Source: Lonicera japonica (taxonomy: Eukaryota; Streptophyta; Magnoliopsida; Dipsacales; Caprifoliaceae). From it: 64,000 bases of DNA. Below the pieces are notes generated by a model that was not told the origin of the DNA, ran no database searches, and saw only the letters and a list, made by a program, of their open reading frames with translations. Both the position numbers and the translations under genes were made by a program. Below, one piece after another: positions 6,411-64,000 of this stretch (its first letter is position 1; each line of letters starts with the position of its first letter). The DNA lies in contig CM038468.1 in NCBI GenBank assembly GCA_021464415.1, positions 26,007,325-26,071,324 on the forward strand. Direction: 5' to 3'.

Positions 6411-6587
6411 GACTTGGGTTAGGGTGTATATGACTGGAAGACAAGATATGTTTTGTGGGTTGGAGTCATTGAATTTGAATGGTTTGCAAAAAGGTTCTTT
6501 TAAAAGTGGAGCGATGTGGGATGAGGATTTTAACTGCTCAGTTGCTCCTTGTCGAGAAAAGAAGTCAGCAATACCATTGTTTTTGCC

Positions 6588-7148: not shown

Positions 7149-7172
7149 ATCCTTAGAGATGTGAGGCTGGAG

Positions 7173-8360: not shown

Positions 8361-8501
8361 TTTGGCATGAGGGGATTTGATAATGAGACATTCTTCTTGA
8401 GAGAAAGCAAGTTGTTGTAATGAACGAACTGCTTCTTCTGGTTCAGTGGAAAGTTCTGAAGTAGCCGTTTCGCTAGGAGCGTCTGATTCAGCGTCTGATG
8501 C

Positions 8502-9053: not shown

Positions 9054-9098
9054 CTTCAGAGTTTTCTGTGCTTCAGTAACTAGAGAATCTGGGAAAGA

Positions 9099-9615: not shown

Positions 9616-11242
9616 TGTGAGAATCCACAAATGCGACCCCCGAGTCTCGTCCCCGTTCGTTGGGTGTCTCGAAACGTCGGAACGGATCCCGTCGTTCCAT
9701 TTTCTTGGAGTTGGTTTGATAATTCATATCGGGTGTCCCTCTATCCTGTTTCTAGGTTCAAGAAGGTTCGTTCAGAGTCGCCAGTACGTTTTACGAGAAA
9801 ACGGACAAAAAGGGTTTTGTAAGGGGAAAGGCTACATATAAGCCTTTCTTTACACGTTTGTCTGCGAAACCAGGATTCTATAGGGTTCGGGAACTATATT
9901 ACGGTTTGGGAAGGTGTTAAGCACCCATTCCGCCCTTTTGGTCTCTAGTGATCTTATATGTTTATTCTATGTTGAAAAACTTGGATGCTTTTACTGACAG
10001 TCTACTACTTTTCAAATGAAAACCCTAATTTCTGGGAGAAAACGGGAAAGGGATAGAAACCTTTGTGTTCCGAGATCCGGTGTTTTTATTATTGAAAGAT
10101 ATAAATACAAATGACAAAAACCTTTTATTTTGAAAGAGTATCCCGTATTATTTCCTCAGATAATGATGGTTTTCTCGTGTTGTGATTACTTTTGTAAAAG
10201 TTCGGATCTTGTATCGGGACTAATTTAATATGGAACTAGAACTCTTTGAGGAGAGTTATCAGACACGTCGCAGTCTATAGAGAAGACAGGATATGTTGAT
10301 TTTAATTCCTAGATAAGTCGTATCAGTCCGGGTTTTGAAAGCAGAATTTTATCCGGATGATAACGTACTTATTCTTCTGGTTTTGCAAATGGTTTTATCG
10401 GGGTCCTTTGTTTTGAAGACGGTAGACTATTTATAACTTGGCAATAAGTTTATTCAAATAAAACGAGGACAAAACAACAGAAATAAAACAAGTACACGGA
10501 CAAACCTGATTTTCGAGCGCGTTAGAAACCTAGCACAACCATGTTGCCACTTCGCTTACTAGGACGGGGATCGACCTGCCCGGTCAGGTCGCGGGGATCG
10601 ACCTGCAATGATACAGCAGAGAGATCTCCGACGATGATAATCTTCTCCTTCTTCAGATATTTCCAAGAATTCGATTCCCGAGATTGGACACGTCGAGTGT
10701 CGAGAATAGATTCGATAATTCTTCAGAAATAAGACGATAATAGAAAATACTAGACGAAAGATCAGAAAATCAGATCATAAACTCGCAATTCTGCTCTAAA
10801 ACTGCTGTTTTTTGCTGTGATGTTGGTATCCCCAAACCTTGGGTGCTGCTGGCCTATTTATAGTGCCGAAAAGGTGTATGTCGTGCGACATTTGGGCGTA
10901 TGTCGCGCGACATACTTGACTGTCGCGCGACATTCTACTTTAATGATGATTTTGACTCACTGCTGAGTCAGAAAGTGGAGTGGTGGGGTGTTTGTCGCGC
11001 GACATGTTCCCCAAAAGGTAGGATTGTCATGCGACATACACCAGTATGTCGTGCGACAATCTTGACTGTCGCGCGACAATCTTGAATGTCGTGCGACATT
11101 TCACTTTAAAACATGTTTGTTTGGCCAATAGACGCTTCCGGGGCAGTCTCGGGTGTTCAGGTGGATCCCGGAGTCCAGAAATAGCAGTTCTCGAAGGTTG
11201 TTAGGGTTCTTGCGGGGGTGGTCACGGATCGGGGTGTCTACA
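9616..11242. mobile_element. Solo LTR (Ty3/gypsy-like, possibly Tat/Ogre lineage) inside the viral capsid gene
   Basis: A 1627-bp insert absent from copy 1. It starts TGTGAGAATCC, ends GGGGTGTCTACA, and is flanked by 5-bp direct repeats GCTGG (9611-9615 and 11243-11247). Removing the insert and one repeat gives exactly the copy 1 sequence. TG...CA ends, 5-bp TSDs and no internal coding region identify a solo LTR left by recombination between LTRs. The ending GGTGTCTACA and the inner motif near 9909 (GGGAAGGTGTTAAGCACC) recall Tat/Ogre elements; lineage is tentative. Strand is undetermined, although a TATA-like CTATTTATAG at 10853-10862 suggests plus. Confidence 0.85.
10879..11098. repeat. Cluster of eight 12-bp palindromes in the solo LTR
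   Basis: TGTCGCGCGACA occurs perfectly at 10901, 10921, 10993 and 11067. Single-change variants occur at 10879, 11047 and 11087 (TGTCGTGCGACA) and at 11025 (TGTCATGCGACA). They lie just downstream of a possible TATA box, so they would fall in the transcribed leader of the parent element. Such dense self-complementary GC-rich words in AT-rich DNA could be protein-binding sites or RNA hairpins; function is unknown. Confidence 0.8.
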
Positions 11243-11393
11243 GCTGGGCTGAGTAAATCTGATCAAAGGCTTGAAACAAGTCATCTGATTCAGTTTTTAC
11301 TGGTTCGCGATCTGAGAAAGCCAAAGCTTTGAGAAAAGATCCTATCTGATTGACAGAATGGTTTTCAAAAGCTTCCATGGTAAACATATCCAA
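11243..11393 (-). pseudogene. Pararetroviral capsid N-terminus, copy 2
   Basis: Continuation of the capsid gene on the far side of the solo LTR, matching copy 1 positions of about 1550-1700. The start codon region at 11393 is preserved. It can no longer be expressed as a capsid because the LTR splits it. Confidence 0.8.
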
Positions 11394-12054
11394 AGGTTTG
11401 GTTGAAGCACCTTGGATAACATCTGGTGGTTAAGCTGGGGGGGGGGGTATATGCTGAGGGTGTTGTTTTAGGTGTGGTTTGGGAGGTAATCTGCTGGGGC
11501 TGAGATGGAGAGGGCACTGTTTTTAAAGGAGTAGGAAATGGATCCAGTCCTCTGACTTGTCTGGCTGTAGGAGGGGGTGTAACAGCTCTGAGAGGTTTTG
11601 ACCAATCAACTTGATCAGGGTGTTTGGCTTTATAAGGATAATTTGGCTTTGGTGGAACAAACTTTGGTTTGGGTTTTGGGGGAGAGGTTGACCAGGGAGG
11701 TAACCTTCTTTTGGGGGGTTCGTCCCAAAGGTTTATGGATTGGGGTTGAGTTTTACCAGAAAGGGAATATTCAGCTGGGTTATACGAAGGTTGGATAGGT
11801 CTTTCTGGAGGGTAAAACACCGAATAACTAGAAAAATCCGATGTAGGGTTCACTGGTTGAGGAGCATAAGGATTAGGATGAGTTGCAGCTTGTCGCTTAA
11901 CAGCTTCACTTCTTTCAAGGGACTCCAATTGAATTTGGAGTGCTCGCTTTTGATTTTCAGAATCTCTGAAAAATTTCTTTCTTACCAGCAAAATCTCTGA
12001 CAATCATGGAGACAAAACGCATCTAATCATTGAGAACCTTAATTCTCATTTTTA
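11365..12054 (-). pseudogene. Pararetroviral coiled-coil/proline-rich region, copy 2 (truncated)
   Basis: Near-identical to copy 1 positions of about 1680-2350. The open segment (11365-12003) reads through into the wrong frame of the capsid start because the C-tract between the two domains is eleven long here (11437-11447) against six in copy 1. The upstream end is lost: at 12054 viral homology stops abruptly and CACTA-type repeats begin. The movement-protein part of copy 2 is absent. Confidence 0.75.
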
Positions 12055-25472: not shown

Positions 25473-26861
25473 TCAAATCTCATCCACGAAAGCCTTTAGA
25501 TTCAAATGTGAAGATCCACCTTCTTCCACAGCTTCCCTTGCCAAAATTTTCCATTTCTTAGCATTCTTTCTCACTTCATGTCCTCTTTCTCCATCTCCCA
25601 TCACCAGTTCTATGCACTCCTTCATCTCACTTCTCTCCACTATCCCTTCTTCATTTGGCTTCACTCTCACCCCTGTCTTCCACACATCCTCAATAAGCTT
25701 CGCGTTTGTCGCTTGATCGAACCACTGAGGAAACGCCACCATCGGTACCCCACAAGTCACACTCTCCAGCGTCGAGTTCCACCCACAATGTGTCACGAAA
25801 CACCCCACCGATTTGTGCGAAAGAACCTCCACTTGCGAGCACCACGGCACTATCATCCCTAACTCTTTCAATTCGCCACTAAAATTCATCTCGTCTTCTT
25901 GTTTTTTCGCCCCGTTATTGTCTTCTCTTATCACCCACAAGAATGGTCGGCGGCTCTGAAGCAATGCCTGCCCGATCTCTTCAATTTGTTTGCTCGAAAA
26001 TACTGAGATGCTTCCGAATGATATGTAAACGACGGATGATTCGGTTTTTGAATCCAACCATTCAATGTAGTTTCTTGATTTTTGGAAAAGATCTCCACCA
26101 AATGATTTGTCGGAAGGGTCTTTCCCGTCCAGGAAAGCCGACGGCATCAACGGTCCGATTGCCTTCATTTTGAGCTTCTCCGTAGTTCTTAGGAATCCGA
26201 ACTCCAACGCGTCGAACGTATTCACGAGTATATTAGGGTTGGTTTCTTCCTCGATTATATTGAAGTGTTCTTTGAAAGTTGGGAGAGGAAAGTTGTATGT
26301 GTTTGAGGACAGAAGGAATGATGGAAGATCATGGTTAGTGAGGAGTGGCAATCCCGGTAATTGAATTAAAGACGAGGGGTCACTATTACTTTTACTAATA
26401 ACATCACCGTACCCATTGAGGTTATAGTAATAGATGTCAAAAACGGTGGCCGGTTGGATCCACAGAAGTGTACATGGCACACAGAGACGATGAGCCACTC
26501 GACCCGCCCAAGAAATTATGGTAGTGTAGACCACTTGGGCAAACGGTTTGCCTTCGGCTGCCCCGGTGGTTATAAGTTCAGCTATGTGTTGTGAACCATG
26601 GTTTTCCAGCTCGGATATGTAGTTTTCTACGTCACCACCGGACTGTAGGCCGTTTTCGTAGCCGTCAACGAAGGGAGAGAGGGTTATGCCTCTTGGGATT
26701 GTTGTGTCGGTTTGGTTTTTGATTATTCGATTAATGGCCGATTGGCTGGTGGAGAAGGTGACCTCGACGCCCATTTTGATGAGGCGCTTGGCGAATTGAA
26801 GGGATGGGTTTATGTGCCCCTGCCCCGGAAATATCACTACGAGGACTCGAGGGCTGGCCAT
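25473..26861 (-). CDS. UDP-glycosyltransferase with UGT75-type signature
   Basis: An intact, intronless 462-residue plant family-1 glycosyltransferase (GT-B fold, cytosolic). These transfer a sugar, usually glucose from UDP-glucose, to small acceptors such as flavonoids, auxin, abscisic acid or apocarotenoids. The N-terminus carries PGQGHINPSLQFAKR with catalytic His16. The 44-residue PSPG box runs from W340 to Q383 and contains HCGWNS; the final glutamine (FPQWFDQ) is typical of UDP-glucose users. The segment VVYTTIISWAGRVA has threonine where many UGTs have the His-activating aspartate, and it is followed by LLWIQPATVFDIYYY; both are UGT75 hallmarks. A TATA box lies about 110 bases upstream. 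Acceptor substrate cannot be told from sequence. This is the only intact UGT of the three copies in the window. Confidence 0.93.
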   Translation of the reverse strand: MASPRVLVVIFPGQGHINPSLQFAKRLIKMGVEVTFSTSQSAINRIIKNQTDTTIPRGITLSPFVDGYENGLQSGGDVENYISELENHGSQHIAELITTGAAEGKPFAQVVYTTIISWAGRVAHRLCVPCTLLWIQPATVFDIYYYNLNGYGDVISKSNSDPSSLIQLPGLPLLTNHDLPSFLLSSNTYNFPLPTFKEHFNIIEEETNPNILVNTFDALEFGFLRTTEKLKMKAIGPLMPSAFLDGKDPSDKSFGGDLFQKSRNYIEWLDSKTESSVVYISFGSISVFSSKQIEEIGQALLQSRRPFLWVIREDNNGAKKQEDEMNFSGELKELGMIVPWCSQVEVLSHKSVGCFVTHCGWNSTLESVTCGVPMVAFPQWFDQATNAKLIEDVWKTGVRVKPNEEGIVERSEMKECIELVMGDGERGHEVRKNAKKWKILAREAVEEGGSSHLNLKAFVDEI

Positions 26862-26969
26862 GCCTATTTAGTATGACTGAGAGAGATTTTGTTTTGGGTG
26901 TTTATTATGTTTTGGTGGTGAAGTGAGAGGGGATGGGGTTTGCATGAAAGGTGCATGGGGGTGAATGGA

Positions 26970-28430: not shown

Positions 28431-28668
28431 ATTGATAGTAAACCAGAAAACACCAATCATATATACAAATTTCCTTATCAATCTGAACATACAAACTAGA
28501 AAACTACTTCCCACCATTGCGTCACCTAACAAATGTCACATATATATTTATCTATATATATCCATTCACCCCCATGCACCTTTCATGCATACCCCATCCC
28601 CTCTCACTTCACCACCAAAACATAATAAACCCCCAAAACAAAATCTCTCTCAGTCATACTAAGTAGGC

Positions 28669-29073
28669 ATGGCCAGCCCTCTAGTCCTCGTAGTGATATT
28701 TCTGGGGCAAGGGCACATAAACCCATCCCTTCAATTCGCTAAGCGCCTCATCAAAATGGGCGTCGAGGTCACCTTCTCCACCGGCCAATCGGCCATTAAT
28801 CGAATATCCAAAAACCAAAGTGGCATAACAATCCCACAAGGCATAACCCTCTCTCCCTTTGTCGACGGCTACGAAAACGGCCTACAGGCAGGTGGTGACC
28901 TAGAACACTACATATCCGAGGTGGAAATCCATGGTTCACAACACATCGCTGAACTTATAACCACCCGGGCAGCCGAAGGCAAATCGTTTGCCCAAGTGGT
29001 CTACACTACCTCAATTTCTTATGCGGGTCGAGTGGCTCATCGTTTATGTGTGCCATGTACACTTCTGTGGTGA
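28669..29073 (+). pseudogene. UGT75-type gene, inverted and truncated copy
   Basis: 134 residues matching the N-terminal domain of the intact UGT with 17 substitutions (about 87% identity). The upstream flank from about 28430 also matches the flank of the intact gene in inverse orientation, so the duplication included the promoter. Homology stops at the codon for the tryptophan in LLWIQPA: the next three bases (TGA) belong to unrelated DNA beginning TGATGCATAC and create a stop. The catalytic His is present, but the whole C-terminal sugar-binding domain and the PSPG box are missing, so it cannot act as a glycosyltransferase. The remainder was not found in the window on this strand. Confidence 0.9.
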
Positions 29074-39613: not shown

Positions 39614-40997
39614 TCAAATCTCATCCACAAAAGCCTTTAGATTCAAATATGAAGACCCACCTTCTTCCGCAGCTTCCTTTGCCAAATCTTGCCATTTCTT
39701 GGCATTCTTTCTCACTTCTTCTCCTCCCTCTACATCTCCCATCACCATTTCTATGCATTCCTTCATCTCGTTCCTCTCCACTATCCCCTTTTCATTTGGC
39801 TTCACTCTCAACCCTGTCCTCCACACATCCTCAATAGGCTTCGCGTTAGTCACTTGATCCGTCCACTGAGGAAATGCCTCTGTCGGTACCCCGCATGTCA
39901 CGCTCTCCAGTGTCGAGTTCCACCCGCAGTGCGTCACGAAACACCCCACCGACTTGTGCGAAAGAACCTCAACTTGCGAGCACCACGGCACTATCATCCC
40001 TAATTCTTTCAACTCAACGATAAAACTCATCTCGTCATCTTGTTTTTGCGCCTCACTCGTCTTCTCTCATTACCCACAAGAACGGCCTGCGGCTTTGAAG
40101 CAATGCCTGCCCGATTTCTTCCGTTTGTTTGTTCCATAATACGGAGATGCTTCCGAATGATATGTAAACGACCGATGATTCGGTTTTCGAATCCAACTAT
40201 TCGGTGTAGTCTCTTGATTTTCGGAAGAGATCTGCACCGAATGATTTGTCAGAGGGGTCTTTTCCGTCCACGAAAGCAGATGGTATCAAGGGTCCGATCG
40301 CCTTCATTTTGAGCTTCTCCGGAGCTCTTAGAAATTCAAACTCCAATGCCTCGACCGAGTTTACGAGTATATTAGGGTTGGTTTCTTTGTTAATGATATC
40401 AAAGTGCTCTTTGAAATTTGGGATAGCAAAGTTGTGTGTGTTTGAGGAGAGAAGGAAAGAAGGAAGATCATGGCTAGTGATGGGCGGCAATCCAGGTAAT
40501 TGAATCGAAGACGAGGGCTCATTATCACTTTTACTAATAACATCACCATACCCATTGAAGTAGTAGTAATAGATGTCAAAAACGAGGGCTGGTTGGATCC
40601 AAAGAAGGGTACATGGCACGCATAGACGATGAGCCACTCGGCCTGCCCAAGGAATTAGGGTGGTGTACACCAATTGGGCAAATGGTTTGCCTTCAGTTGC
40701 AGCAGTGGTAATAAGTTTGGCGATGTGTTCTGAACCATTGTTATCGACCTCAAGCATGAAGTGTTTGAGGTCGATACCCGGTTGTAGGCCATTTTCATAG
40801 CTGTAGAAGAAGGGAGAGAGAGTAAGGCCTAGTGGGGTTGGGTCAATTTTGGCTTTGGTTATGCGGTTAATGACTGATTGGCTGGTGGAGAAAGTGACAT
40901 CGACGCCCATTTTGATGATGCGCTTTGCGAATTGGAGGGACGGGTTTATATGCCCCTGCGCCGGAAATGTCACTAGTAGGATGCGAAGGCCGGTCAT
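39614..40997 (-). pseudogene. UGT75-type pseudogene
   Basis: Third UGT copy, same orientation as the intact gene. Residues 1-266 are open (MTGLRILLVTFPAQGHINPSLQFAKR start, catalytic His retained, YTTLIPWAGRVA, LLWIQPALVFDIYYYY). At 40197-40199 a tryptophan codon of the intact gene (IEWLDSK) is TAG. About 150 bases further, near 40040-40060, a net loss of about two bases shifts the frame. The C-terminal half then reads open from 40030 to 39614 with an intact PSPG box containing HCGWNS and ending WTDQ. Two independent lesions in the middle argue for a true pseudogene. The 3' flank matches that of the intact gene, with an extra ~130-bp segment at about 39468-39600. Confidence 0.92.
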
Positions 40998-41145
40998 GTC
41001 TATTTAGAATGCGGTGCAGGAGAGAAAGAGAGAGATTTTGGTTTTGGAAGAGACAAGGCGTGTGGGTTATGTGATGGAGAAGTGAGTGGATGGCTATGCA
41101 TGAAAGTTGCATGAGGGTGTAGGGATATATATATACATATACGTG

Positions 41146-42340: not shown

Positions 42341-42345
42341 AAAAT

Positions 42346-42521
42346 TGTTGGAGGTAAATCCACAATTGCGCTCCTCTCCGTGGTGAATCCGGAGGGTATA
42401 TCCGGTGTGCAGGTTATCTAATGCCATGGCGCTCTAATGGTCGTTGGGTACAAGGAAATAAAGTTGCGCCTTCGCTAACAGCTATAGCTTTTGGCGCAGT
42501 GGTAAGCGCTTGATCCTCACA
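42346..42521 (+). repeat. 5' LTR of the miniature retrotransposon
   Basis: 176 bp with TG...CA ends. GC-richer than its surroundings. Contains TTTT at 42489-42492 immediately before a box A-like word. Confidence 0.93.
42492..42502 (+). promoter_or_regulatory. RNA polymerase III box A-like sequence in the LTR
   Basis: TGGCGCAGTGG followed by TAAGCGC matches the box A consensus TRGYNNARNNG and resembles the box A of plant tRNA-Met genes. The same word is in the 3' LTR at 42725-42735. Function is inferred. Confidence 0.55.
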
Positions 42522-42523
42522 AT

Positions 42524-42535
42524 TGGTATCAGAGG
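42524..42535 (+). promoter_or_regulatory. Primer-binding site of the miniature retrotransposon
   Basis: TGGTATCAGAGG, two bases after the 5' LTR, complementary over eleven bases to the initiator tRNA-Met 3' end. Confidence 0.85.
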
Positions 42536-42543
42536 AGGTTACG

Positions 42544-42554
42544 GGTTCGATACC
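42544..42554 (+). promoter_or_regulatory. RNA polymerase III box B-like sequence in the internal region
   Basis: GGTTCGATACC differs from the GGTTCGANNCC box B consensus at no fixed position. It starts 52 bases after the box A-like word, within the spacing used by tRNA genes and SINEs. It occurs only once because it is outside the LTR. Confidence 0.55.
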
Positions 42555-42578
42555 TGGGGCGCCATTGTGGGGGGGGAT

Positions 42579-42754
42579 TGTTGGAGGTAAATCCACAATT
42601 GCGCTCCTCTCCGTGGTGAATCCGGAGGGTATATCCGGTGTGCAGGTTATCTAATGCCATGGCGCTCTAATGGTCGTTGGGTACAAGGAAATAAAGTTGC
42701 GCCTTCGCTAACAGCTATAGCTTTTGGCGCAGTGGTAAGCGCTTGATCCTCACA
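42579..42754 (+). repeat. 3' LTR of the miniature retrotransposon
   Basis: Identical to the 5' LTR. TTTT at 42722-42725 could terminate polymerase III. Confidence 0.93.
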
Positions 42755-42759
42755 AAAAT

Positions 42760-50930: not shown

Positions 50931-53663
50931 AATTTAGTAGTAATAACATGAGTTCCTTTCCGATAAATATTGAAGCTTATGTCTCATATTTACATCAAAG
51001 CAATGATTTTTCTTCAGATTTAAGTAGCTTTCTTATATTTTAACTAGAATCTCAACTAATGCTAATGCTATTGTAATTTCAATTTGTCTTATTTTCCCGA
51101 GATTTACGCGTTTTGCCGTGTCATATTTACAAAATGCAATGTATACTATAATATTAGTCACAACACTAAAGAGGATTGTGTATTTCATTAGACGACTTGG
51201 TAATTTTTTTTTCTTGTTTGTCTTTATGATATCTTTGTTCTAGAAGCCCTTGGTTTCTTTTTTACTTCTAACTGGCTGTGAACAAATCTTTCTTTATTTT
51301 CTAGGTCCTTGTTGCAAAAAACCGATGCTATCAATATTGTGAAAGTTTGACATATTTGGAACTAGAATTGGGTAAGTTTATGCCTTCCTATTATTGCACC
51401 TTGAATTTGCAAAATTCTTATTTAAGTACCAATTCAGAATTTTAATGCAAAATTCTGCTATGTACGTGTATCAGAAAGCAAATCATCTAATGATATTAGT
51501 TTTCCTTAAAGCTTTTCTTTTCTTTGCAAATATTTGGAACATCAATGTATATAGGCTAATTAATTAAGTGACTGAGCGATATGTTAAGTAAAAAATTGTT
51601 ATTGCATGCCTTTAAGGAGTATAAAACTGGAGATAGAGAATAATGAATCAGTTATTAATTAAGTTCAATAGCCAAGAGCGCATATATCCATATATACACA
51701 ATTTTTTTCACATTGATTATTGCACCAATTTGATTGTGGGTTGTAGTTGTAACCAATGATAACCTCAATATATGTTATATATAGGTATGTATAGGTGGGG
51801 TTGCTAATTAAATGTGCAATTTTTTTTAGCACAATTGAGTGTTAAGTAATCTATTTTCCTTCAGGTAGTTGTTAAAATGTGAAGGATGAGACTTTTATTG
51901 GATTGCAACGAATGAAGAACTTTTTGGATTACAGTGAATGAAGACCTTTTTTGATTTCTGCGAATGAAGACTTTTTTTTGGATCGCGTCAAATTACGACT
52001 TTTTTTTTTTGCATTGCTACAAATGAAGACTTTTTTTTATTACTTCAAATGAAATAAACATTTCTTCTTTTTTAAGACTGCAGCAAATGTTAGTTAAATA
52101 TTAGGTCTTTTTATTTCATTTTCCTTTAGTGTAAGACAACTAATTTGCCAATATTAATATGAAGTTTGAATATTTTTTCAATCCAATGCCATGCTTTAAT
52201 TATGGATTATGGATGCTTTTTGAATGAATTGTTTGTTAAATTGGTAATAACTAACTATTTCACCGGGGAGTAACTTTATGGTAATAAGGTTTTGACGACA
52301 CTTGGTAGTTGTCATGGCAATGTGTTCCAACGACACTTGGTAGCTGTCATGACAATGTCTTCTACGACATGTTACATTTGTCGTAAAGGTCATGTTTTTC
52401 ACGACACCGTCAAATTGTCTTAGAAAATCCTTTCAACGACACATATTCACTGTCGTTAATGGGTACCCACGACACCTTGTATATGTCGTCGAATGTGGAA
52501 AACTTTTTACGACACCCTCTCGAGACGACACCACGAATGTGTCATTAAAACCTTTTCACGACATATTTTCTTTGTCATCGAAGTGTTTTTTTCTTGTAGT
52601 GTTTGGAACTAAATTGTTGAATTGCAAAAATATTTTTATTTTACATTTAAAATTCGCTTAATTTTTGCCCAGTTTGGATCTAACGGTAAGATAGAGGCCT
52701 TTCCGAGCTCCGATCATTTTGAAATTTATACAGTAGTTAGACAACATCTCATGTCACTTCTGACTAAAATTTGAGCATGATTCAACGGTCTAATTGGGAG
52801 AAATTAACAAAATAAATTTGAATTTTTTGTCAAAACTAGCTGTTGAAAAGTTTAAAAATGTATAACTTAGAGCCAAAACCTTTCTTAATCATCCCCAACG
52901 GCCATAGGGTTTTGCAAGCTATAAATATGAGGTCCTAGACATGTTTTAACACACTTGGACCATTCTACAAACTTATTTTACATATATACAAAGTTATTCA
53001 AATATTCAATTAATTTTATTGATCATATTCTTCATTTTTTGAGCTATATATTTTTGATCAATCTTGATAACTCTAGTGTGAGCTTCATTTGTAATCTTCA
53101 AATACACTTGTGAGTTATTGTATTGGTGTGTATCACCACAAATAATTCATTCTTCTTTTCAAAAGAGAGTTTGTCTCTTTGTAGAGCAAGAGAGCATATC
53201 TTGTGAGAAGTGTAGTGTGTATAACTACATTGTGAGTGTTGTGTGCATAACAACATTTTTATTGAGGTTTGATATTCACCCGAAGAAGATTGAATAGTGA
53301 AAATTCTCGGGGAACTAACCGAGCGCGGACGTATGATTGAAGAAATCGAACCGTGAGGAAAAAAAGTCTTGAGCTTCAAATTGGTTCAATCTTTCTAACT
53401 CAAGCTCTCTTTTTATTGTTATATTATTGCTTTTATTTTGAGATTGCTTATTTGCTTATCTTGGGATTGATTACTTGAAATTGATTATTTCCTTGATATT
53501 GTTGCTTAGCTAAGTTGCTTTACTTAAATATTTTAAAAATGTTTTAAATCCGCATTAAGTTTTTAAAACCCTATTAACCCCCCTCTAGGATTATTTTTCG
53601 ACCAACAATTGGTATCAGATGTTGTACTCTTATTTTGATTTAAAAATCTTAGAGTTTAGGATC

Positions 53664-55053
53664 ATGTCTATATATCAAGGAACTGATCTTTCTGAAGGTC
53701 TCTCCACTCATAGACTACCTCTATTTGATGGTAAAAATTATAGTTATTGAAAAAATAGAATGAGTATATTTTTACAATTTAGTAATTTTGAACAATAGAG
53801 AGTTGTACTTGAAGGACCCTATGAAATTACCAAAAAAGATGATAGTGGAAAAATTGTTCCTAAGGAAATGTCCGAGTATGATGAAAATGATATTAAGAAA
53901 ATTCAATATAATGCTAAAGCCTTAAATGCTTTAAATTGTGCATTAAGTATGGATGAATATAACAAAATTTCTAGTTGCAAAACGGCCAAATAATTTGGGA
54001 TAAACTTGAGATTACCTATGAAGGAACCACTCAAGTTAAAGATGATAACATAAATATGCTTGTTCATGATTATGAATTATTTAAAATGGAGCCTAATGAA
54101 TCTCTTGCTTCCATGTATAGTAGATTTTCTATTATTACTAATGATTTGGATCTTCTTGGAAAAGTTTATTCTAATGAAGATAAGATAAGAAAAATTCTTA
54201 GGATTCTTCCAAAGAAGTGGCATCCAAAAGTGACGGCGATTGAAGAAGCAAATAATCTCAAAACACTCAGCATGGACGAGCTTTTGGAATCTCTAAAAAC
54301 TCATGAGAAGGAACTTCAAAGAAAAGAAGAAGAGGATACAAAATCAAAGAAAACTTTAGCTCTCAAAACTATCCAAAATGAAGATAATGATGTATTAATG
54401 GATGGTGATGAAGACATGGTGCTTCTATCTAGAAAATTTATAAAATTTCTAACTAAGAAGAAAAATTCTCAAGGAAAGGATAACAAATATCCATCATCCT
54501 CTAGAAGAAACAACGATCGATCAAATCAACAAAGAGGAGAAAATGAAAAAATCAAAAAGTGCTATAATTGCCATGAACCCGGTCATATCAAGCCAAATTG
54601 TCCAGTTAGAAAGAAAGAGAAAAGGAATAAACGAGATAAAGTATTGAAACAAGTAAAGCATGCACTAAAAGGAACATGGAGCAATTCCGAAGAAGGAGAA
54701 TCGGATGCCGATTCTAGCGATGAAAAAAAGGCTAACCTTTGTCTTATGGCAAATGAAGATGAGGTTGTATGAGAGAAAAAGCTAGCAAAACAAAGTGGTT
54801 CTTGGATAGTGAATGCTCGAAATACATGACGGGAGAAAAGAGAAATTTCTTGAGTCTCACTCCTAAATAAGGAGGTAACGTTACATTTGGAGACAATGTC
54901 AAAGGTAAAATCATTGGTATAGGTAAAGTTGATAATAAATCTTCTTATATTGATAATGTTTTACTTGTTGATGGTTTAAAACATAACTTGCTTAATATTA
55001 GTCAATTGTGTGATAAAGGTTATGAAGTTATTTTTAAATCTGAATGTTGCATT
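53664..55053 (+). pseudogene. Copia element B: gag and protease region
   Basis: Gag starts at ATG 53664. Early stops are TGA (53748) and TAG (53796) at the same two codons as in element A, then a private frameshift near 53988. The open segment 53975-54772 has the UBN2-type Gag core (MEPNESLASMYSRFSIITND) and the knuckle CYNCHEPGHIKPNC. The following protease region reads WFLDSECS, with Glu (54811-54813) replacing the glycine of the D-S-G active site, and contains a stop. Homology ends at 55053 with insertion of CACTA-3. Confidence 0.85.
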
Positions 55054-55739
55054 CACTACACCATAATGACCCTTTTGTAACAGATCTTGTCCGTTGGCGA
55101 AAATATTTCTAACATACAAAATCCGTTACTAATTTGGCGTTGGAAACACTTTAGTAACGGATATATTTGTTACAAAAATTAATCAAAACCGTTACAAAAA
55201 TAATTTTGTAACGGACTAAAATTGTTGTTAATCTGTTACTATTAAAATTTAAGTAACGGATATATTCCGTTACAAAATACTATACATCAGTTACAATAGT
55301 ATGCAAAAGTAACTAAATCTCAAATGATTTGTAACACTTACAGCCCGTTATTAATCATAAAACTGTTATAAATTTGTAACGGTTTATAGCCATTACAGAA
55401 AATAAATTGAATAAAAAATTTAATAGATATTTTTTCCAATTTCCTGAAATTGTATAAATTCCTATACCTGTAGATGCACTAGTTTTAGTACCACATTTTT
55501 AGCTGCACAATACAAATTCATATATAATGTTCAAATAGCATCATATGTTTCCATATTTATCAAAAAAATTACCCATTCAATATTCATCTAAAACTAAACC
55601 AATATTCTTACAAAAACATGTCAATCCACAAATATAAGGCGCCAAAAGATGTTTGACCATACATAAAACATACTAAATTCAAAATGGCCAAGTCTACTTT
55701 ATTAGCCTCTTCTTTTGCTTTTGCAATCCATAAGTGAAT

Positions 55740-55860
55740 CAACTACTTTTTGGTAACATGTGAACCAACTCCACGAACATGTCCCCTTTGATCCTTGCCA
55801 AAAACTTCAGACAATTCGTCGTTCTCAGTACTAGATACCTCTCCACTTTTTCTTTTTGAT
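55740..55860 (-). pseudogene. En/Spm-type (Ptta) transposase fragment
   Basis: Minus strand encodes ELSEVFGKDQRGHVRGVGSH, matching the VxGKExxGRVRGVG signature of plant Ptta/En/Spm transposases. It is followed by decayed sequence in CACTA-3. Confidence 0.65.
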
Positions 55861-56092
55861 TTTGCTTCCTTGACTTTATCTTATCAAAATCACAAGTTAA
55901 GAGTATTACAATTTGTAAATAACGTACAGTTTGAAGCTCAAAGTAAAATTACAAAGTACTTACATAATCTTGAAATAAGAATCAACAACAATAAGGATCA
56001 ATATTAGTTAGCAAAAGTCTCCATTACTAAAATAGTCCCTACATTCAAGTAAATATATCAAACCAATATATGTTAATAAAGAGTACCTTATA

Positions 56093-56350
56093 CAGGGACG
56101 AAGCCAGAAATTTGAGGTAGAGGGGGCATACATTGAACACTAATAAATTTAAAAGTATCATAAGCGCTGATTAATTTCTTTTTGAAGTACCGTATCAAAA
56201 CAAAAGAAAATCTCAAAGTACAATATTAAAAAAAGTATCTCAAAGTATTACTGCAATTGTCCTCGACAAGTTTTCATAGTTTATAACCGATTCATGATAA
56301 TCGAGGAGGGGTGCCGGCTGCCCCCCTGAGCCTGCTACAACTCCTCCTTG
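56093..56350. mobile_element. hAT-type MITE in CACTA-3
   Basis: 258 bp with ends CAGGGACGAAGCCAG and, from the right on the other strand, CAAGGAGGAGTTGTAG. The flanking 8-mers ACCTTATA (56085-56092) and ACTTTATA (56351-56358) differ at one base and fit a hAT TSD. Confidence 0.75.
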
Positions 56351-56399
56351 ACTTTATAGATATAATAAGGTGGGCAAAGTTTAAATTCTTTGGAAAATA

Positions 56400-58045
56400 A
56401 GGTGGACAATGTTATATGTTACCATGTACAACATACAAAATTAGCAGCAGTGTGAACAGTTTCTGCAAACCAAATATGCTTCAGTTTTTCTACATATTCT
56501 CCCAGCAGTTATGTTCTTTTATATGAGGCAGATTATTTGAGCTGCATTGATGGTTTTTCTTTATTTTTCGATCTTACTTCAGTTAGGCCATCATGTTTAG
56601 GCCTTTTATTCAGTTTTTGCTTGTTATTTTTCCAGGCAGCCTGCTCTATTTTCCTATTTTAGAATATATTGGCAGATTTCCTTCTCACTTTCTGGTTGTT
56701 TGTGTGTGCCAACATGTTTTGGCTTCTTTAGAATGTGCTTTATGGACTTTACAGCTTAGAGGACTTAATAAAAAAAAGAGCAAATTTTATGACTTCCAAT
56801 GGCAGGCATTGTTGGCAAATCAAAAGAAAAGACAAGAAGTGGCAGCTACAAATAAAGAAAATGAAGAGCAGCTTGATGCAGTTTGTGTTGTATATATATA
56901 TTAAATGTGAATGATATAATTACTTTGGTGCATGTAGCTTGAGTGGGAGAGGCCTGAAAATTTGGCTTGGATGTCCTTGGTTCAAGTGAGCTACATTTAT
57001 TACTAAATATTTTTGCTACTTAAATTAATATTCCTTCCGTTTGATAGGCTGATTTCAATTTTGCTGGTTGTTCGTCTCAGCCAATGCAATTTAGGCAGTT
57101 TATTTTTCTGCAGAAACACTATGTATTCAAAGCAAAACCAACTAGGCCTACACACAGTGGACACATAACAAAGCATGATGGCAAACAAAAGGAAAAAAAA
57201 CACAAAAACAATCCAAACAAAACATACTACTTGAACTGAATGAGGTGGGAAATGCCCATCCCTTCTCTGTTCTATCTAACTTCCTTACTTATCATATAAC
57301 TAGATTGGAATTTGTGTGATGCAGTGGTAAATCTTTACAAAAATGTCTTTTGCAATGAATAACTGTTGATGTAACGGTAATCACATGCATAAATCTTAAA
57401 GAAGGCTTCAGAAAAATATTGATGCATAACCGAATCAAAAGAGAATAAAGAGAGAGCAAATAAGGCATTTGAGTGTAACCTAGTCAATAGAATTTTAATT
57501 TCGTAGTTAACAGAAATCAAGCAAAATCATACCTATACGCACCAAAGTCAAGAACAGTTGCATTTGTTCCCAATATCTCTATTTTCTCCTTCAAAGTAGT
57601 ATCCTAGAAACTCCATATAATAATTTAAAAAGAAAAAAGAAGAAGATGTTATACATATACATCACATCCAATAATATAGGAATTTTTGTGGAAACAATCG
57701 ATTATTATGTTTAATTTTATGAGTTCGAGTCTTTTTTTAAGCATTATTTTACTACGGCCTTTAAAGTTTGAAAGATATTTTAAACATTTTTTATACGAAT
57801 TGAAAACTCTGTGCTCATGCTTAATTTATTTTATAAATAAATCAAACTTTTTTATTTTTTATTTTGTTTTAATAGAAATCACATTTTACATAAGATTGAT
57901 TTGCATATATATGGAATGGTGCTTCTGACTTTGACCACCACATGGATCTGCTTTTGCCGACTTTGAACTAAATCCCCCAACAGCACATGGTCCTTCTAAT
58001 GTGCTTCTTTCTCTCACTGCTATTCAATTCTAAACAAAGAATATT

Positions 58046-58083
<38 letters not shown>

Positions 58084-59750
58084 GAGGCATAAGATGAAGT
58101 GAATGAGTAATGTGGAATGAGGAAATGGGCACAAAAAGGTAAAGAGAAAGCATGTGTTTGACTAGTCTCTCTATTTTGGTCACTTGTTTCAGCATTTACC
58201 CACACTTATCTTTCTTTTGTATCAAAACTAAGATTTGGTGCAGCCGAATCTTGAAATTTAATTCATTTAATTATAACAAAAAAATCCAAATAATTTGTCA
58301 TAAGCCTAAATAATGCCGTTAATATTATGGATTATTTGTAAATTGAATTACTGCCCTAAACCCAATAGTGAACGTATATTAAATCTAAAAGAGATTAAGA
58401 TCTCTCGCCTACCAAATATTCTGACTAAAGTTTCTTTAAATACTCATGTCGTTTTACAAAGATTAACCATGCAATAAATTGCGGTTTTTTATGATCTTTC
58501 TCCTCTTGCTTTGTGATCTATATTCTACCAATGTTTTAGTTAGACCTTTGAGATACCCAATTTCCATTCATTGAAAAAGCAATAAAAGATGGCATATGGT
58601 TTGATTACAAGATATTTTCTTTTCCAGATTTTCACTTGCATCTAAGTTAAAGGCCGCCTGTTTGGTTGAGATGCCACCATGACAGAATAATACTACGCTC
58701 ATCAATTAATTTGAACAAATTTAAAAATAAGAAAGAAGGGTATTCATATTGTCAAAGTAATTATGTTTAATCTAAGAAAATGAGGAAAAGACCTATAACA
58801 ATAGCTCAAAGTACCCTAAAATTAACCAAAAAATGACAGTATATAATAAGCTTAAGAAAAGTGAAGAAAACAAGCAAAGTTGTTGTATCAAAAGAATAAA
58901 TTCATGGACATGAAATTGGTGAATATAATTACGAAGAATCTAATACTAGGACTACCACCCCACATTTTATCGAATAAACCTCATTATATAAAACGAGAGG
59001 CCCTCAAACAACTAATAGTCAAAACACTCATCTCCTAAATCTAATACTAGGACTGCCTTATAGAAATACCAACCTGAATGACCAACATTGCCACAGTTCG
59101 GTCAACTAAACGACGCTCACTCCTACCCTCATCAACTAATCTCTACCTTACTTTACAATAACATAACTCGTGCTCTGAAAATACTGCGACTGGTTTTATT
59201 GGACTATTACCAAAGAGTTTTATTTTAACTTTTCTTTAAGAAACATTAAGTTTAACTTAACCACTCACAAAAGAATAACTTAGTTACGAAAGTAAGATAT
59301 AGTATATAGATTGTGTCCTAAAAACAGGCAACACTTAAATTAAGAGCCCCAATTTTCCCACTACTATTGTTATCATTTTGAAAAGAAAACCAAACAGGTA
59401 TAAATCAACGGGTTCAAAATTTTTTTGACAGAAAATGGATGGCAACACAGTTTGCAAGATCCTAGTACTATAAATAGTGGATTAAGATTGTATCTAAAAA
59501 TTGATGGATTATATTTTCGTAAAGAATCCCACATGAAACGTTGGCAGGCATTAACAAAAACCATTAACAAAAATCCAAGTCTTGTGACTAAATAATTCAA
59601 AATCACAGACACCAATCAAAAGCACAAATCTTAGGTGAATGATTTGACTAAGAAACATAAATATATTATAACAAAACATGGTGAGTTGTGGATTTGTCAT
59701 TTATACTGAGCACCAAAATTGGAGATCATAACAACCTATTAATACTAAGA
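56400..59750. other. Interior of CACTA-3 without assigned genes
   Basis: A 103-residue ORF at 56593-56904 ends in a charged KKRQEVAATNKENEEQL segment that could be an exon of a transposase gene, but I cannot confirm it. A (CA)n(TA)n microsatellite lies at 58047-58082. The rest is AT-rich and non-coding. Confidence 0.4.
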
Positions 59751-60094
59751 AATATGAATAATATCAGTATAAGAACCTTAGGGGTTGACGGCGAATGTAG
59801 AGGAATGTCGGAGAGCTAAACGATGGAGGGATGTACTTGCATTAGCGATTGTGAGGAGCAACGTGTGTCAGAGAAATGGTGAGAGGAACGGCGCCAAGGA
59901 AGGGGGTAAAAGGAACGGCGGCGAGGTGAACGGGGTGAGAGATTCGGTAGCAGTGGCGAGGTGAAGGGGGTAAGGTGAGGGGGTAACGACTGTGAGCTAG
60001 GGCTTTTTTGTTCTTTTCATTTTTCATCGAGTGTGAGAGATATTTTTTTATTTTTTTTGTTTTTTGATTTTTTGTTTAATTAAAATCTAAGAGG

Positions 60095-62749
60095 GGAAAC
60101 CAATATGGATTTAATTAATAAATTATCTAAAAAGGAATTAGTTAAAGGATTGCCTAAAACTAAATTTGATAAAGATAGAATTTGTGATGCATGTCAACTT
60201 GGTAAACAACACAAGTCTTCCTTTAAATCTAAGAAAGATATTACTACTACTAGACCACTTGATATGTTACATTTAGATTTATTTGTACCTAATTCGGTTG
60301 CTAGTTTAGGTGGTAAATTGTATGCCTTTGTGATTGTTGATGATTTTTCTAGATTTACTTGGGTATTATTTCTTACTCATAAAAGTGAAACACCTCATGT
60401 ATTTGCTATATTCTGTAGAAAAGTTTAAAATGAAAAGGGTACTTCTATTGTACATGTTAGAAGTGATAGAGGTATAGAATTTGATAATATTGATATTGAG
60501 AATTTTTGTGATGAGCATGGTATTAATCATAACTTTTCGGCACCTAGAACTCCTCAACAAAATTGTGTGGTTGAAAGAAAAAATAGATCTTTTCAAGAGA
60601 TGTCTAGAACTATGTTACATGAACATTCTTTACCGGAATATTTCTGGACAGAAGCCGTTAATACCGCATGCTATGTAACTAATCGTGTTATTATTCGTAA
60701 AAAGTTAGATAAGACACCTTACGAATTATGGAATGTTAAGAAACCTAATATTGCATATTTTAAGGTTTTTGGTTGTAAATGTTTCATTTTAAATGATTGT
60801 GATCATTTAGGAAAATTTGATGCTAAATCCGACGAAGAAATATTTCTTGGATATGCTACTAATAGTAAAGCTTATCATGTTTATAATAAGAAAAGTTTAG
60901 TTGTTCAAGAATATATACATGTTGTTTTTGATGAATCTAATCCTTTTGCACCCATAGTGCATTCCGATGATGATGTTGAAATTATCCAAAAAGTTTCAGA
61001 TATTCAAATTAATGATACATCTAAGGAAGAACCATCGAGTGCTCAAACTTCTTCTAAGGAGATAGAAAGTAAGGGGGCGAACAAAACTCGAATGATTTAC
61101 CTAAGAGTTGAAAATTTGTGTCCAACCACCCTATTGATCAAATTATTGGAGATCCATCTAGTAAGGTTATGACTAGATCATCCTTAAGAAATGTTTGCAA
61201 TAATGTGGCATTTGTTTCTCAATATGAGCTTAAAAACATAAATGAAGTCAAACAAGATGAATCTTGGATGATGGCTATGCAAGAAGAGCTCAATCAATTT
61301 GAGAGAAATAAAGTGTGGACACTTGTTACCAAACCAAATGATCATACTATTATAGGCACTAAATGGGTATTTCGGAATAAAAAGGATGAAAATGGTGTTA
61401 TTATTTGAAATAAAGCTAGACTCGTTGGCCAAGGATACAATCAAGAGGAGGGCATTGATTATGAAGAAACATATGCACCCGTTGCACGTTTAGAAGCTAT
61501 TTGCATGCTACTTGCTTACTCTTGCTTTAAAAATTTCAAGCTATATCAAATGAATGTGAAAAGTGATTTCTTGAATGAATTTATTGAAGAGGAAGTTTAT
61601 GTGAAACAACCTCCCGGATTTAAAAATTATACGCATCCGAATTACGTATTTAAATTGTCTAAAGCATTATATGGCTTGAAACAAGCACCTAGAGCATGGT
61701 ATGATAGATTAAGTTCATTTTTGCTTAATAATGGATTTGTTAGAGGCAAAGTAGACACTACTTTATTCATTGCCAATGATATGCTACTTGTGCAAATTTA
61801 TGTTGATGGTATTATTTTTGGTTTTACTAATGACAATCTTTGCAAAGAATTTTCTACTTGTATGCAAAAGGAATTTGAAATGAGCATGATGGGAGAGATG
61901 AATTATTTTCTCGGATTGCAAGTAAAGCAATGCAAAGATGGAATCTTTGTCAATCAAGAGAAATATGTGACGGAACTCTTAAAGAAGTTCGACATGGAAG
62001 GCGCTAAATCAATGAGTACGCCTATGAGTTCAACGTTGAAACTTGACAAAGACGAAAGTGGTAAGAGTGTTGACATAAAGAAGTATCGAGGTATGATTGA
62101 TAGCTTACTTTATTTAACGGCTTCTAGGCCAGACATCATGTTTAGTGTTTGTTTATGCGAACGATTCCAAGCGAATCCAAAAGAATCCCACTTACACGCC
62201 GTAAAACGTATATTCCGTTATCTTTTCGGCACTAGTTCTTTGAGTTTGTGGTATCTAAGAGAGAACATATTTGACTTAATAAGTTATTCCGATGCAGATT
62301 TTGCGGGTTATGAAATCGATAGGAAAAGAACTAGTGGCACATGTCACTTTCTAGGACACGCACTAGTATCTTGGTCAAGTAAGAAACAAAATTCGGTGGC
62401 CCTTTCAGCGGACGAAGCCAAATACGTGGCGGCCGAAAGTTGTTGTGCACGAACTTTATATATTAAACAACAACTAGAAGACTTTGGAATTAGTCTTAGC
62501 CACATTTTCATTAAATGTGATAACACAAGTGCTATTAGCTTGACTAAGAACCCCATACAATATTCACGTACTAAGCACATTGAGATAAGACATCATTTTA
62601 TTCGTGATCATGTGCAAAAAGGTGATGTTGATATTGAATTTGTTAGCACCGAATCGCAATTTGCGTATATTTTCACTAAACCACTACCGGACGATCGTTT
62701 TTGTACTATCCGTCGTGAACTTGGTATGACTAGAGCTTGTGACATCTAG
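60095..62749 (+). pseudogene. Copia element B: integrase, reverse transcriptase and RNase H
   Basis: In order: integrase zinc finger second half (CDACQLGKQH), the DDE core with aspartates in LHLDLF and SDRGIEF and the glutamate in VVERKNRS, then RT (GTKWVFRNKKDENG, NVKSDFLNEF, YGLKQAPRAWYDR) and RNase H (YSDADFAGYEIDRKRTSGT) ending at a TAG at 62747. Lesions are a TAA at about 60426, a frameshift near 61110, a TGA at about 61406, and the RT catalytic box YVDD changed to YVDG (glycine codon 61808-61810). Without the second aspartate the enzyme would be inactive. The 3' LTR is not found after 62770. Confidence 0.88.
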
Positions 62750-62835
62750 TTTGATTAAAAAAAACACAAGTCTTCATTTTGCATGTTATTGTAAACTAAT
62801 AATAATTTTGCAGTTTAAAAATCATTATCTGTTAT

Positions 62836-63609
62836 TCAAAGAAAAGAAGGGAAAAGAATCTGAAGATCATCAGCATCAAAATTCAAAACATCATTGAGAC
62901 TAGAAGAAGAATAATAAACAAAATTATGCTCTATATCTAATAGAGTTGTCCAATCAGGGCTCATTGGCTCGACAACCTTTGCAACAACACTACGGTTTGA
63001 AAGATTCTCGATAGTCGAAAGAATTTCAGGTGCAGCTTTTTCTGCCGACATGAGGAGCCCTAAAAATCCTCCAGATGAAGGAGATGCCAACAAATCAGCA
63101 TCGATTGGAAGAATCTCATGTTCTGGAAGATTTTCGGTAGTCGGATTAATACCTGGCGCAACATTTTCTGTCGATGATAGGAGCCTTGAAGAACTTCTAG
63201 GAGGAGCAAAAGAAAAGCATGGGTTAGCGCTAGAAGACTCTCCTAATCGAGCCTCTAACGCCAGCACCTGTGATTGCAAAGCCTCTAACGTTGTCACCCG
63301 TGATTGTAACTCTTCTACCTTCTGTTCAAGAGAAACAATGAGCGCAATACAGCCTTTACTGGGATTCTCGATTCTCGCCTTAGCTTAAAAAAGAAATGAA
63401 TTTAGAGTCTCAAGATATTGATGTTCGGGAATATTTTGTAAAGTATTTGCAACACTCTTTACCCCGAAAACGGTGAAGATTGTGCGATAATCTTGACGAC
63501 TAATCACATCAAGAAAAATTTGTGCATATTCACACCATGGATGACATCTCTTGCGTCTATAAGTGCAAGCAGCACAAGAAGAACCTGTACAACGAAAGGT
63601 ATTCGCCAT
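62836..63609 (-). pseudogene. LOB-domain (LBD) transcription factor gene with an in-frame stop
   Basis: The ATG is at 63609. Residues 12-26 carry CAACTYRRKRCHPWC, the CX2CX6CX3C zinc-binding C block of LBD proteins. FTVFGVKSVANTLQNIPEH is the start of the GAS block. At codon 75 (63385-63387) a TAA replaces the conserved glutamate of the LVYEA-type motif, and the same frame resumes with AKARIENPSKGC and then a leucine-zipper-like coiled coil (LEQKVEELQ, LEALQSQVLALEARL), running open to 62836 with a serine-rich, acidic tail. The total is about 257 codons. LBD proteins are plant nuclear regulators of organ boundaries and lateral organs. A single G to T change explains the stop; an intron there is possible but I see no good splice sites. 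Confidence 0.75.
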
Positions 63610-64000
63610 ACTTATGATTTAGTTTCCTTTACTCAAGGGTACCTCCTATAAAAGTTATAAGAAGAAAATGGATCTCAAGGGAGATAACAAGAAAGAGGGG
63701 ACAAGAGACATCTAGCACTGAAAGAATCTCAAAGATGAAAAGCTGTCTTCTTTAAAAGTCAAAATATATAGCGCCTCACACGTGCATCTAGAATTCGGAG
63801 CCCTTGCATGGTTTAGCTCCCTTTTTGATGTTGACATAGGGGGAGAAAATATGTGTATGATGTTGATGCTTCGGTAAGAGGCGGTAAGATTTTTTGCTGT
63901 GGTAAGATTTTTTATACTGACTTTAAATGTTGTGGTAAGATCTACATTCACACTTTTGAAAGGTTTATTTATAAAATATTAGTTTTGGTTTTAAAACTAT
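63610..64000. other. Upstream flank of the LBD gene
   Basis: No gene supported. A GATGTTGACATAGGGGGAG word at about 63827-63845 recalls the purine-rich ends of copia internal regions, but no LTR could be matched before the window ends. Confidence 0.35.

What the first reader, a model, noticed from the sequence alone, without database searches (positions are those of the whole stretch)
42346..42754. A 409-bp retrotransposon whose RNA polymerase III-like promoter is split across the LTR and internal region
Seen: identical 176-bp LTRs, perfect AAAAT TSDs, a 57-bp internal region, box A-like TGGCGCAGTGG at 42492 in the LTR, box B-like GGTTCGATACC at 42544 in the internal region, and TTTT directly before box A in each LTR. 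Known: Cassandra elements carry a polymerase III (5S rRNA) promoter in their LTRs, and most other TRIMs are thought to use polymerase II. Inference: transcription from the 5' LTR would start near 42481-42484 and stop at TTTT 42722-42725. That RNA would begin and end inside equivalent LTR positions, giving a minimal terminal redundancy of about ten bases, exactly what strand transfer needs. Only the 5' LTR would have box B downstream, so only one LTR would act as promoter. Both boxes resemble tRNA-Met, the primer family of the element, hinting at promoter capture from the primer tRNA.
Basis: partly seen in the sequence, partly recalled or inferred. Interest (0 to 1): 0.85.

Follow-up and report, generated by a model that had tools for sequence, protein, structure and literature searches.

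The report
Mini-retrotransposon with boundary-spanning tRNA-like promoter
A tiny plant-type mobile element, probably copied by the enzymes of a larger retrotransposon, carries a tRNA-like start signal that straddles its repeat and its core, so that only one of its two repeats could switch it on; whether the signal is really used has not been shown.

Summary
42346-42754 is a TRIM: identical 176-bp LTRs, 57-bp internal region, iMet-type PBS, G-run PPT, AAAAT target-site duplications (TSDs). 29 of 39 close copies in the unnamed 886-Mb host genome have perfect 5-bp TSDs. The LTR/internal junction carries a box A/box B pair fitting the published plant SINE consensus. It is the only such pair in the window, and 0 of 20,000 shuffles give one. 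The stretch aligns with host tRNA-Cys through both arms, but Rfam's tRNA model does not match it. The LTR|PBS border falls in the enlarged 'anticodon loop'. New finding: 63 exact junctions join Copia LTR ends to this TRIM's internal region, and two chimeras with unlike LTRs sit in perfect TSDs. They were joined before integration, which names the likely helper; a relative lies at 52.6-64 kb of the window. Pol III use is inferred. Box A even varies more than expected, conservation tests had no power (the PBS shows no slowdown either), TTTT is a weak terminator, and TATA/AATAAA motifs leave a pol II rival. New variant of the published TRIMp3/Helenus kind.

The parts
42341..42345 (+). Target-site duplication AAAAT, left
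   Evidence: Sequence; equals 42755-42759
42346..42521 (+). 5' LTR, 176 bp, TGTTGG...TCACA
   Evidence: 100% identical to 42579-42754
42394..42403 (+). TATA-like GGGTATATCC (rival pol II promoter)
   Evidence: 58 of 78 copies have exactly these letters; TATAT is in all 8 forms printed, which make up 78 of 78
42457..42462 (+). AATAAA (possible pol II poly(A) signal)
   Evidence: Within GAAATAAAG (68 of 78) or AAAATAAAG (9 of 78)
42475..42484 (+). Predicted pol III start region (inference from box A position; not measured)
   Evidence: Inference; rule recalled for tRNA genes
42489..42492 (+). TTTT in 5' LTR (leaky pol III terminator candidate)
42492..42502 (+). Box A TGGCGCAGTGG; letters 2-11 fit RRYNNRRYGG (plant SINE A box, PMC2774510)
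   Evidence: 69 of 78 copies fit
42492..42557 (+). tRNA-like region: 4-bp D stem, 5-bp anticodon-type stem with enlarged loop, 4 of 5 pairs of T stem
   Evidence: stems counted on a typed stretch with the AATGG box A type of family copies; not matched by the Rfam tRNA model
42522..42578 (+). Internal region, 57 bp
42524..42534 (+). Primer-binding site TGGTATCAGAG (complementary to the 3' end of initiator tRNA-Met; complementarity recalled)
   Evidence: TGGTATCAGA also starts the internal region of the Copia relative at 53605
42544..42554 (+). Box B GGTTCGATACC, fits GGTTCGANNCC
   Evidence: 63 of 78 copies fit
42569..42577 (+). Polypurine tract (8 G then A)
42579..42754 (+). 3' LTR, 176 bp
42722..42725 (+). 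TTTT in 3' LTR (proposed RNA end)
42755..42759 (+). Target-site duplication AAAAT, right
52602..64000 (+). Relative of the likely helper, a Copia element: LTR end ...GACCAACA|ATTGGTATCAGA at 53605, gag (PF14223), integrase-side domain (PF25597; integrase core below cut-off), RT (PF07727), one GGGGGAGA tract at 63839; 5' LTR truncated, 3' LTR outside the window
   Evidence: all 14 chimeric stretches compared match its LTR (71-93%)

Best explanation
This is a non-autonomous TRIM retrotransposon mobilised by a Sirevirus-like Copia element. Its genomic RNA is most likely made by RNA polymerase III from a tRNA-like internal promoter that spans the border of 5' LTR and internal region. Box A lies in the last 30 bases of the LTR and box B just after the PBS. 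Shown: the anatomy, the promoter-like pair, many copies with their own TSDs, and two physical Copia/TRIM chimeras integrated as single molecules. Inferred: TFIIIC binds both boxes and pol III starts near 42475-42484 in the 5' LTR. The RNA ends at TTTT in the 3' LTR in part, or runs on past the LTR. Either RNA repeats at least R of the 5' end, so minus-strand DNA primed by tRNA-iMet can jump to the 3' LTR. Copia reverse transcriptase and integrase finish the copy. A consequence is that a 3' LTR or solo LTR, having no box B, is silent as a promoter.
For: Structure and TSDs. Unique box pair in 64 kb, 0 of 20,000 shuffles. Exact fit of both boxes to the plant SINE consensus printed in PMC2774510 (passages). 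tRNA-like sequence outside the boxes: best host tRNA score 42, reached by 46 of 3000 shuffles of the middle with boxes fixed and by 1 of 3000 full shuffles. The 4 reconstructed box A changes with 5 or more copies on each side of the tree all stay within the consensus. Helper: 63 exact Copia-LTR|PBS-TRIM junctions, 0 with the pattern read backwards, with 5 kinds of Copia LTR end; the upstream sequences of all 14 loci compared match the LTR of the window's own Copia at 52602-53619; L189 (TSD AATGT) and L194 (TSD CATTC) have a Copia LTR on the left and a TRIM LTR on the right within perfect TSDs.
Against: No RNA data. Rfam's tRNA model does not match even at E 10, and ARAGORN finds no tRNA in the window. 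Box A has more, not fewer, changes than U3 context predicts (33 against 21.5), and internal/terminal ratios of consensus-breaking changes do not differ from U3 (3:20 against 72:393, Fisher P 0.52). Transitions at R and Y positions keep the consensus by default. TTTT is weak and lies a few bases after the predicted start in the 5' LTR. TATA-like and AATAAA motifs give a conventional pol II layout. The older box A type lowers the tRNA-Cys match from 46 to 38.
Confidence: 0.6

Rival explanations
1. An ordinary pol II TRIM: TATA-like GGGTATATCC at 42394 starts RNA near 42425-42435, and AATAAA at 42457 ends it near 42475-42490, giving an R of about 50 nt. The tRNA-like stretch is a relic of a captured SINE or tRNA and is not used.
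For: TATAT is in 78 of 78 copies and AATAAA in 77 of 78; AATAAAG has 1 change against 5.1 expected (P 0.09), the TATA stretch 6 against 9.1. Box A is not conserved beyond context. Cassandra-like TRIMs with TATA boxes coexist with Cassandra in two species (PMC10853983, passages).
Against: Short AT motifs are easily met and AT letters rarely change here (0.41 changes per site against 2.6-4.5 for C and G). A relic need not keep two boxes at working spacing in both old and young subfamilies.
Confidence: 0.27
2. The two boxes are a coincidence of U5, PBS and leader sequence.
For: The PBS is itself antisense to tRNA-iMet (recalled), so some tRNA-like letters are forced; the tRNA covariance model gives no match; the search pattern was written after the element had been seen.
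Against: Box B and box A lie outside the PBS; 0 of 20,000 shuffles and no other pair in 64 kb; similarity continues between the boxes (46 of 3000).
Confidence: 0.08
3. The Copia/TRIM chimeras arose by recombination after integration and say nothing about the helper.
For: Such recombinants outnumber template-switch complexes in Triticeae (table: 20 recombinant, 2 template-switching; PMC1950507, passages). In 7 of the 14 chimeric loci read, a polypurine tract stands right before the Copia LTR, so a Copia body presumably lies upstream, and no TSD could be tested. Some junctions lie in tandem arrays.
Against: L189 and L194, the only two loci read with both outer ends of the chimera in view, each have perfect, different 5-bp TSDs around unlike LTRs.
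Confidence: 0.1

Closest known systems
Helenus (TRIMp3; Kojima 2024, PMC10886601; parts 1-4 of 6 of the text read, plus figure legends and tables)
   Same: Short non-autonomous LTR element, PBS, PPT, 5-bp TSD (fungal and plant ones), tRNA-like box A and box B presumed to be a pol III promoter, Copia helper proposed for the fungal ones
   Different: Helenus has the tRNA-like sequence inside its LTRs, so both LTRs carry it; here it spans LTR and internal region. The one plant species listed is Selaginella moellendorffii.
Cassandra (TRIM with 5S rRNA promoter in its LTRs; as described in PMC10886601, and in passages of PMC10853983)
   Same: TRIM with pol III promoter; RNA begins and ends in the LTRs with a short redundancy (18 bp)
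   Different: 5S-type promoter, complete in each LTR
Ordinary plant TRIMs such as OsajRetroS10 with Copia OsajLTRA10 (Gao 2016, PMC4717578, passages)
   Same: 408 bp, Copia relative, 5-bp TSDs, tandem arrays in the paper
   Different: Helper proposed there by shared LTR and internal sequence; here LTRs differ and the link is by chimeras; no promoter described there (words promoter and tRNA: 0 hits in the main text)
Template-switch complexes of Triticeae (Sabot and Schulman 2007, PMC1950507, passages)
   Same: Complex LTR elements with TSDs, explained by joining during reverse transcription
   Different: There between closely similar elements, switch proposed at R; here between unlike elements, junction at LTR|PBS
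Retrozymes (PMC4918200, passages)
   Same: Small non-autonomous LTR elements with tRNA-Met PBS
   Different: They carry hammerhead ribozymes; no Rfam family reached its gathering score in the window

Membership tests
TRIM | Two LTRs, PBS, PPT, under 1 kb, no coding | tested here: met
   409 bp; no stop-to-stop ORF of 130 aa or more overlaps it
TRIM | Mobile by LTR-retrotransposon route (5-bp TSDs) | tested here: met
   29 of 39 copies with perfect TSDs
Helenus | tRNA-derived sequence within the LTRs | tested here: not met
   Box A in LTR, box B in internal region, in the window and by alignment in 77 full copies
Helenus | Boxes A and B conserved | tested here: inconclusive
   Consensus kept in 69 of 78 (A) and 63 of 78 (B), but A has more changes than context predicts and B only slightly fewer
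TRIMp3 (TRIM with pol III promoter) | pol III transcription of the element | not testable with these tools
   Needs RNA ends and pol III occupancy
TRIMp3 (TRIM with pol III promoter) | small-RNA-gene-type promoter sequence | tested here: met
   covariance model negative
Cassandra | 5S rRNA promoter in LTR | tested here: not met
   No Rfam match in the window at gathering score
Retrozyme | Hammerhead ribozyme in LTR | tested here: not met
   No Rfam match in the window at gathering score
Helper is a Sirevirus (Copia) | Copia gag and RT; repeated polypurine tracts before the 3' LTR (lineage hallmark recalled) | tested here: inconclusive
   Window relative: PF14223, PF07727, one GGGGGAGA seen; L128 and L129 have two each, L129 matches the pol end of the window relative at 87%; no lineage tree made

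The most novel reading that the evidence does not exclude
A TRIM of a plant-type genome whose pol III promoter exists only across the LTR|PBS border. Transcription, LTR end formation and primer binding are overlaid in one 66-base tRNA-like module, so each new copy has exactly one active promoter and its 3' and solo LTRs are born silent.
Probability: 0.5. Interest if true: 0.72.

Novelty: new variant of a known kind. Interest (0 to 1): 0.58.

Why it matters
How the smallest LTR elements are transcribed and which element helps them is open for many TRIMs (Gao 2016 found larger relatives for 11 of 289 subfamilies; passages). Here one family gives both a testable promoter model, with the unusual prediction that only the 5' LTR with its internal flank is active, and hybrid integrants that name the helper. 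If pol III use is shown, a split promoter would explain how an LTR element avoids promoter activity in its 3' and solo LTRs.

Tried and rejected
Rfam scans of the window at gathering score, of the junction and of seven divergent copies: no tRNA match. The mir-548 and MIR3712 hits in L113 come from an inverted repeat in that one copy and were not pursued. RNA folding of the junction in copy L082: z -1.44, 19 of 200 shuffles fold at least as well, not a cloverleaf; no support. Bacterial-type promoter/terminator scan: irrelevant for this genome, 0 found. First conservation run (59 copies plus window) showed no box changes on internal branches outside the R and Y positions 42499 and 42500; the larger run (77 plus window) removed that contrast (P 0.52), and the larger run is what I report. 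Copies fetched by patterns that require box B and by the junction query were left out of the conservation counts because they are biased; they are in the printed alignment. A partial LTR duplication in L122 starting at CTTTTGGCGC could mark an RNA 5' end, but it is one case. Parent tRNA: host tRNA-Cys against recalled iMet, undecided (only 20 of the 63 tRNA hits were fetched). TSDs around the long Copia+TRIM chimeras: the pattern search did not complete. Host species: not identified.

Full report
WHAT IS THERE. The element at 42346-42754 is as described: two identical 176-bp LTRs, a 57-bp internal region, PBS TGGTATCAGAG at 42524-42534, a G-run polypurine tract at 42569-42577, and AAAAT on both sides. 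One overlap: TTTT 42489-42492 shares its last base with box A. The window lies in an 886-Mb genome without a name; 'plant-type' rests on its gene and repeat content by my reading. The search scored 40 of 574 candidates, all near full length at 96-100% identity. Of the 39 other copies, 29 have perfect 5-bp TSDs, mostly different from each other. The family is therefore real and moved as an LTR retrotransposon. LTR-LTR divergence over the window copy and 59 others is 0 to 0.068, median 0.028; only the window copy has zero, so it is among the youngest.

THE PROMOTER-LIKE PAIR. Using a tRNA-type box A and box B pattern, 25-75 nt start to start, the only pair on either strand of the 64-kb window is 42492/42544, and 0 of 20,000 dinucleotide shuffles of the LTR+internal unit give one (the pattern was written after the element had been seen). 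Letters 2-11 of box A and all of box B fit the plant SINE promoter consensus RRYNNRRYGG and GGTTCGANNCC printed in PMC2774510 (passages). The box A to box B distance is 52 nt; in the 17 of 20 host tRNA genes where my script placed both boxes properly it is 43-45 (three others were misplaced by the script). The stretch between is tRNA-like too: it aligns with host tRNA-Cys from D arm to T arm, score 42, and with the boxes held fixed only 46 of 3000 shuffles of the middle score as well. The stems fit: D stem 4 of 4 pairs, anticodon-type stem 5 of 5, T stem 4 of 5. The LTR end and start of the PBS fall into the loop of the anticodon-type stem, enlarged to 13 bases. Against this, Rfam's tRNA model gives no match at E 10, ARAGORN none, and the junction RNA folds otherwise. 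So it is a tRNA-like promoter sequence, not a tRNA. The parent is unclear: for the older box A type, host tRNA-Cys scores 38 and a recalled plant initiator tRNA-Met 37; for the young type 46 and 37.

DO COPIES KEEP THE BOXES? I aligned 77 further full copies chosen by whole-element similarity (from the lists), plus the window. Box A fits the consensus in 69 of 78, box B in 63 of 78, both in 55 of 78. The four reconstructed box A changes with 5 or more copies on each side are C to T and T to C at a Y position, A to G at an R, T to C at a Y; all stay in the consensus. But transitions at R and Y positions stay in the consensus by default, so this is weak. Changes against those expected from U3 by cytosine context: box A 33 against 21.5 (98.6% of simulations have as many or fewer), box B 16 against 23.5 (P 0.057), PBS 17 against 20.1, TATA-like 6 against 9.1, AATAAAG 1 against 5.1 (P 0.09). 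Consensus-breaking box changes on internal and terminal branches are 3 and 20, U3 changes 72 and 393, Fisher P 0.52. As the PBS, which must work, shows no clear signal either, most copies are probably dead and the test has no power. It neither supports nor refutes function; the excess in box A counts mildly against it.

TERMINATOR AND START. TTTT is nearly invariant, but T rarely changes here. Four of 20 host tRNA genes read (tRNA-Lys, TTT; two of them look organelle-derived, by recall) contain TTTT inside the gene, and 13 of 20 have a run of 5 or more T in the 40-base 3' flank. So TTTT is probably leaky, which the model needs anyway, as pol III would meet the same TTTT soon after its start in the 5' LTR. 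If RNA runs past the 3' LTR, its shared part with the 5' end is the whole stretch from start to LTR end, about 40 nt, and strand transfer still works (inference).

A RIVAL LAYOUT. GGGTATATCC at 42394 and AATAAA at 42457 give a conventional pol II arrangement; 58 of 78 copies have exactly GGGTATATCC, and 77 of 78 have AATAAA. I keep it at 0.27.

THE HELPER. The pattern PBS + box B occurs 349 times in the genome, of which 100 were listed, in several element classes. Among the 20 stretches then read, some had a different sequence upstream: the 3' end of another LTR, joined exactly at LTR|PBS to this TRIM's internal region and LTR. A dedicated pattern found 63 such exact junctions, none when read backwards, with 5 kinds of LTR end (18 distinct strings), so the joining probably happened repeatedly; some of the 63 lie in tandem arrays. 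I read 14 such loci. The foreign LTR of all 14 matches the LTR of the window's own Copia at 52602-53619, at 71-93% identity, and L129 also matches its pol end (87% over 116 bases). In seven (L188, L190, L192, L193, L195, L125/L128, L124/L129) a polypurine tract stands right before the Copia LTR, so a Copia body presumably lies upstream. In three (L123, L191, L196) the TRIM LTR is followed by a PBS-like start and non-TRIM internal sequence; in L191 and L196 this matches the leader of the window's Copia (81% and 97%). In L109 and L112 the left end was not read. L189 and L194 are short: Copia LTR of 1080 or 801 bp, TRIM internal region, TRIM LTR, flanked by AATGT/AATGT and CATTC/CATTC (L194 by reading the printed sequence). 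Two unlike LTRs within one perfect TSD mean that the hybrid existed before integration. The simplest route is plus-strand DNA of the Copia element annealing by its PBS end to TRIM minus-strand DNA in the same particle (inference). Sabot and Schulman described a related template-switch origin for complex elements (PMC1950507, passages). Repeated GGGGGAGA tracts in L128 and L129 (two each) recall Sireviruses (recalled trait; no tree made). The window's relative has Copia gag and RT domains. Sharing a particle with this Copia is thus well supported; that its enzymes do the work is inference.

LITERATURE. Closest is Helenus (PMC10886601): TRIMs with a tRNA-like sequence inside the LTRs, proposed with Cassandra and Ajax as TRIMp3; the only plant species there is Selaginella moellendorffii. 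I found no description of a promoter shared between LTR and internal region in the listings (open-access papers only; several lists were capped, and only six papers were opened). Under Helenus' definition this element does not belong, since box B is outside the LTR; it works like one, if it works.

VERDICT. Observation confirmed, promoter reading plausible but unproven (0.6), helper newly identified. New variant of a known kind.

Noticed in passing
window 600-12000, - strand: Fragments resembling an endogenous plant pararetrovirus: an ORF with a viral movement protein domain (PF01107, 2792-4216) and one with a reverse transcriptase (PF00078, 7173-8501), with ORF pieces that recur. Described only.
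   Followed up: partly
window 25473-26867 (-), 28663-29073 (+), 39614-41003 (-): UDP-glycosyltransferase gene (PF00201) and similar ORF fragments by eye, a small cluster; the TRIM lies about 1.3 kb from the last one.
   Followed up: no
L122; L149; C3:27685328-27693459: Tandem TRIM arrays (LTR-internal-LTR-internal-LTR), and five near-identical units about 1.9 kb apart on C3.
   Followed up: no
L122 minus strand, around 250-290: One LTR is followed by a partial second copy of its end that starts at CTTTTGGCGC, near the proposed RNA start; could be a trace of an RNA 5' end or mere slippage.
   Followed up: no
C2:8263461, 8265069, 8266677: Three Copia-LTR|TRIM junctions spaced 1608 bp apart, apparently a tandem array of a chimeric unit; in L112 the TRIM LTR runs into an inverted copy of itself.
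   Followed up: partly
G000, one search list: A second class TGGTATCAGAGGTATAGGTTCGA recurs among the 100 listed rows: another element class with GGTTCGA 5 bases after its PBS; L118 shows an unrelated upstream sequence.
   Followed up: no
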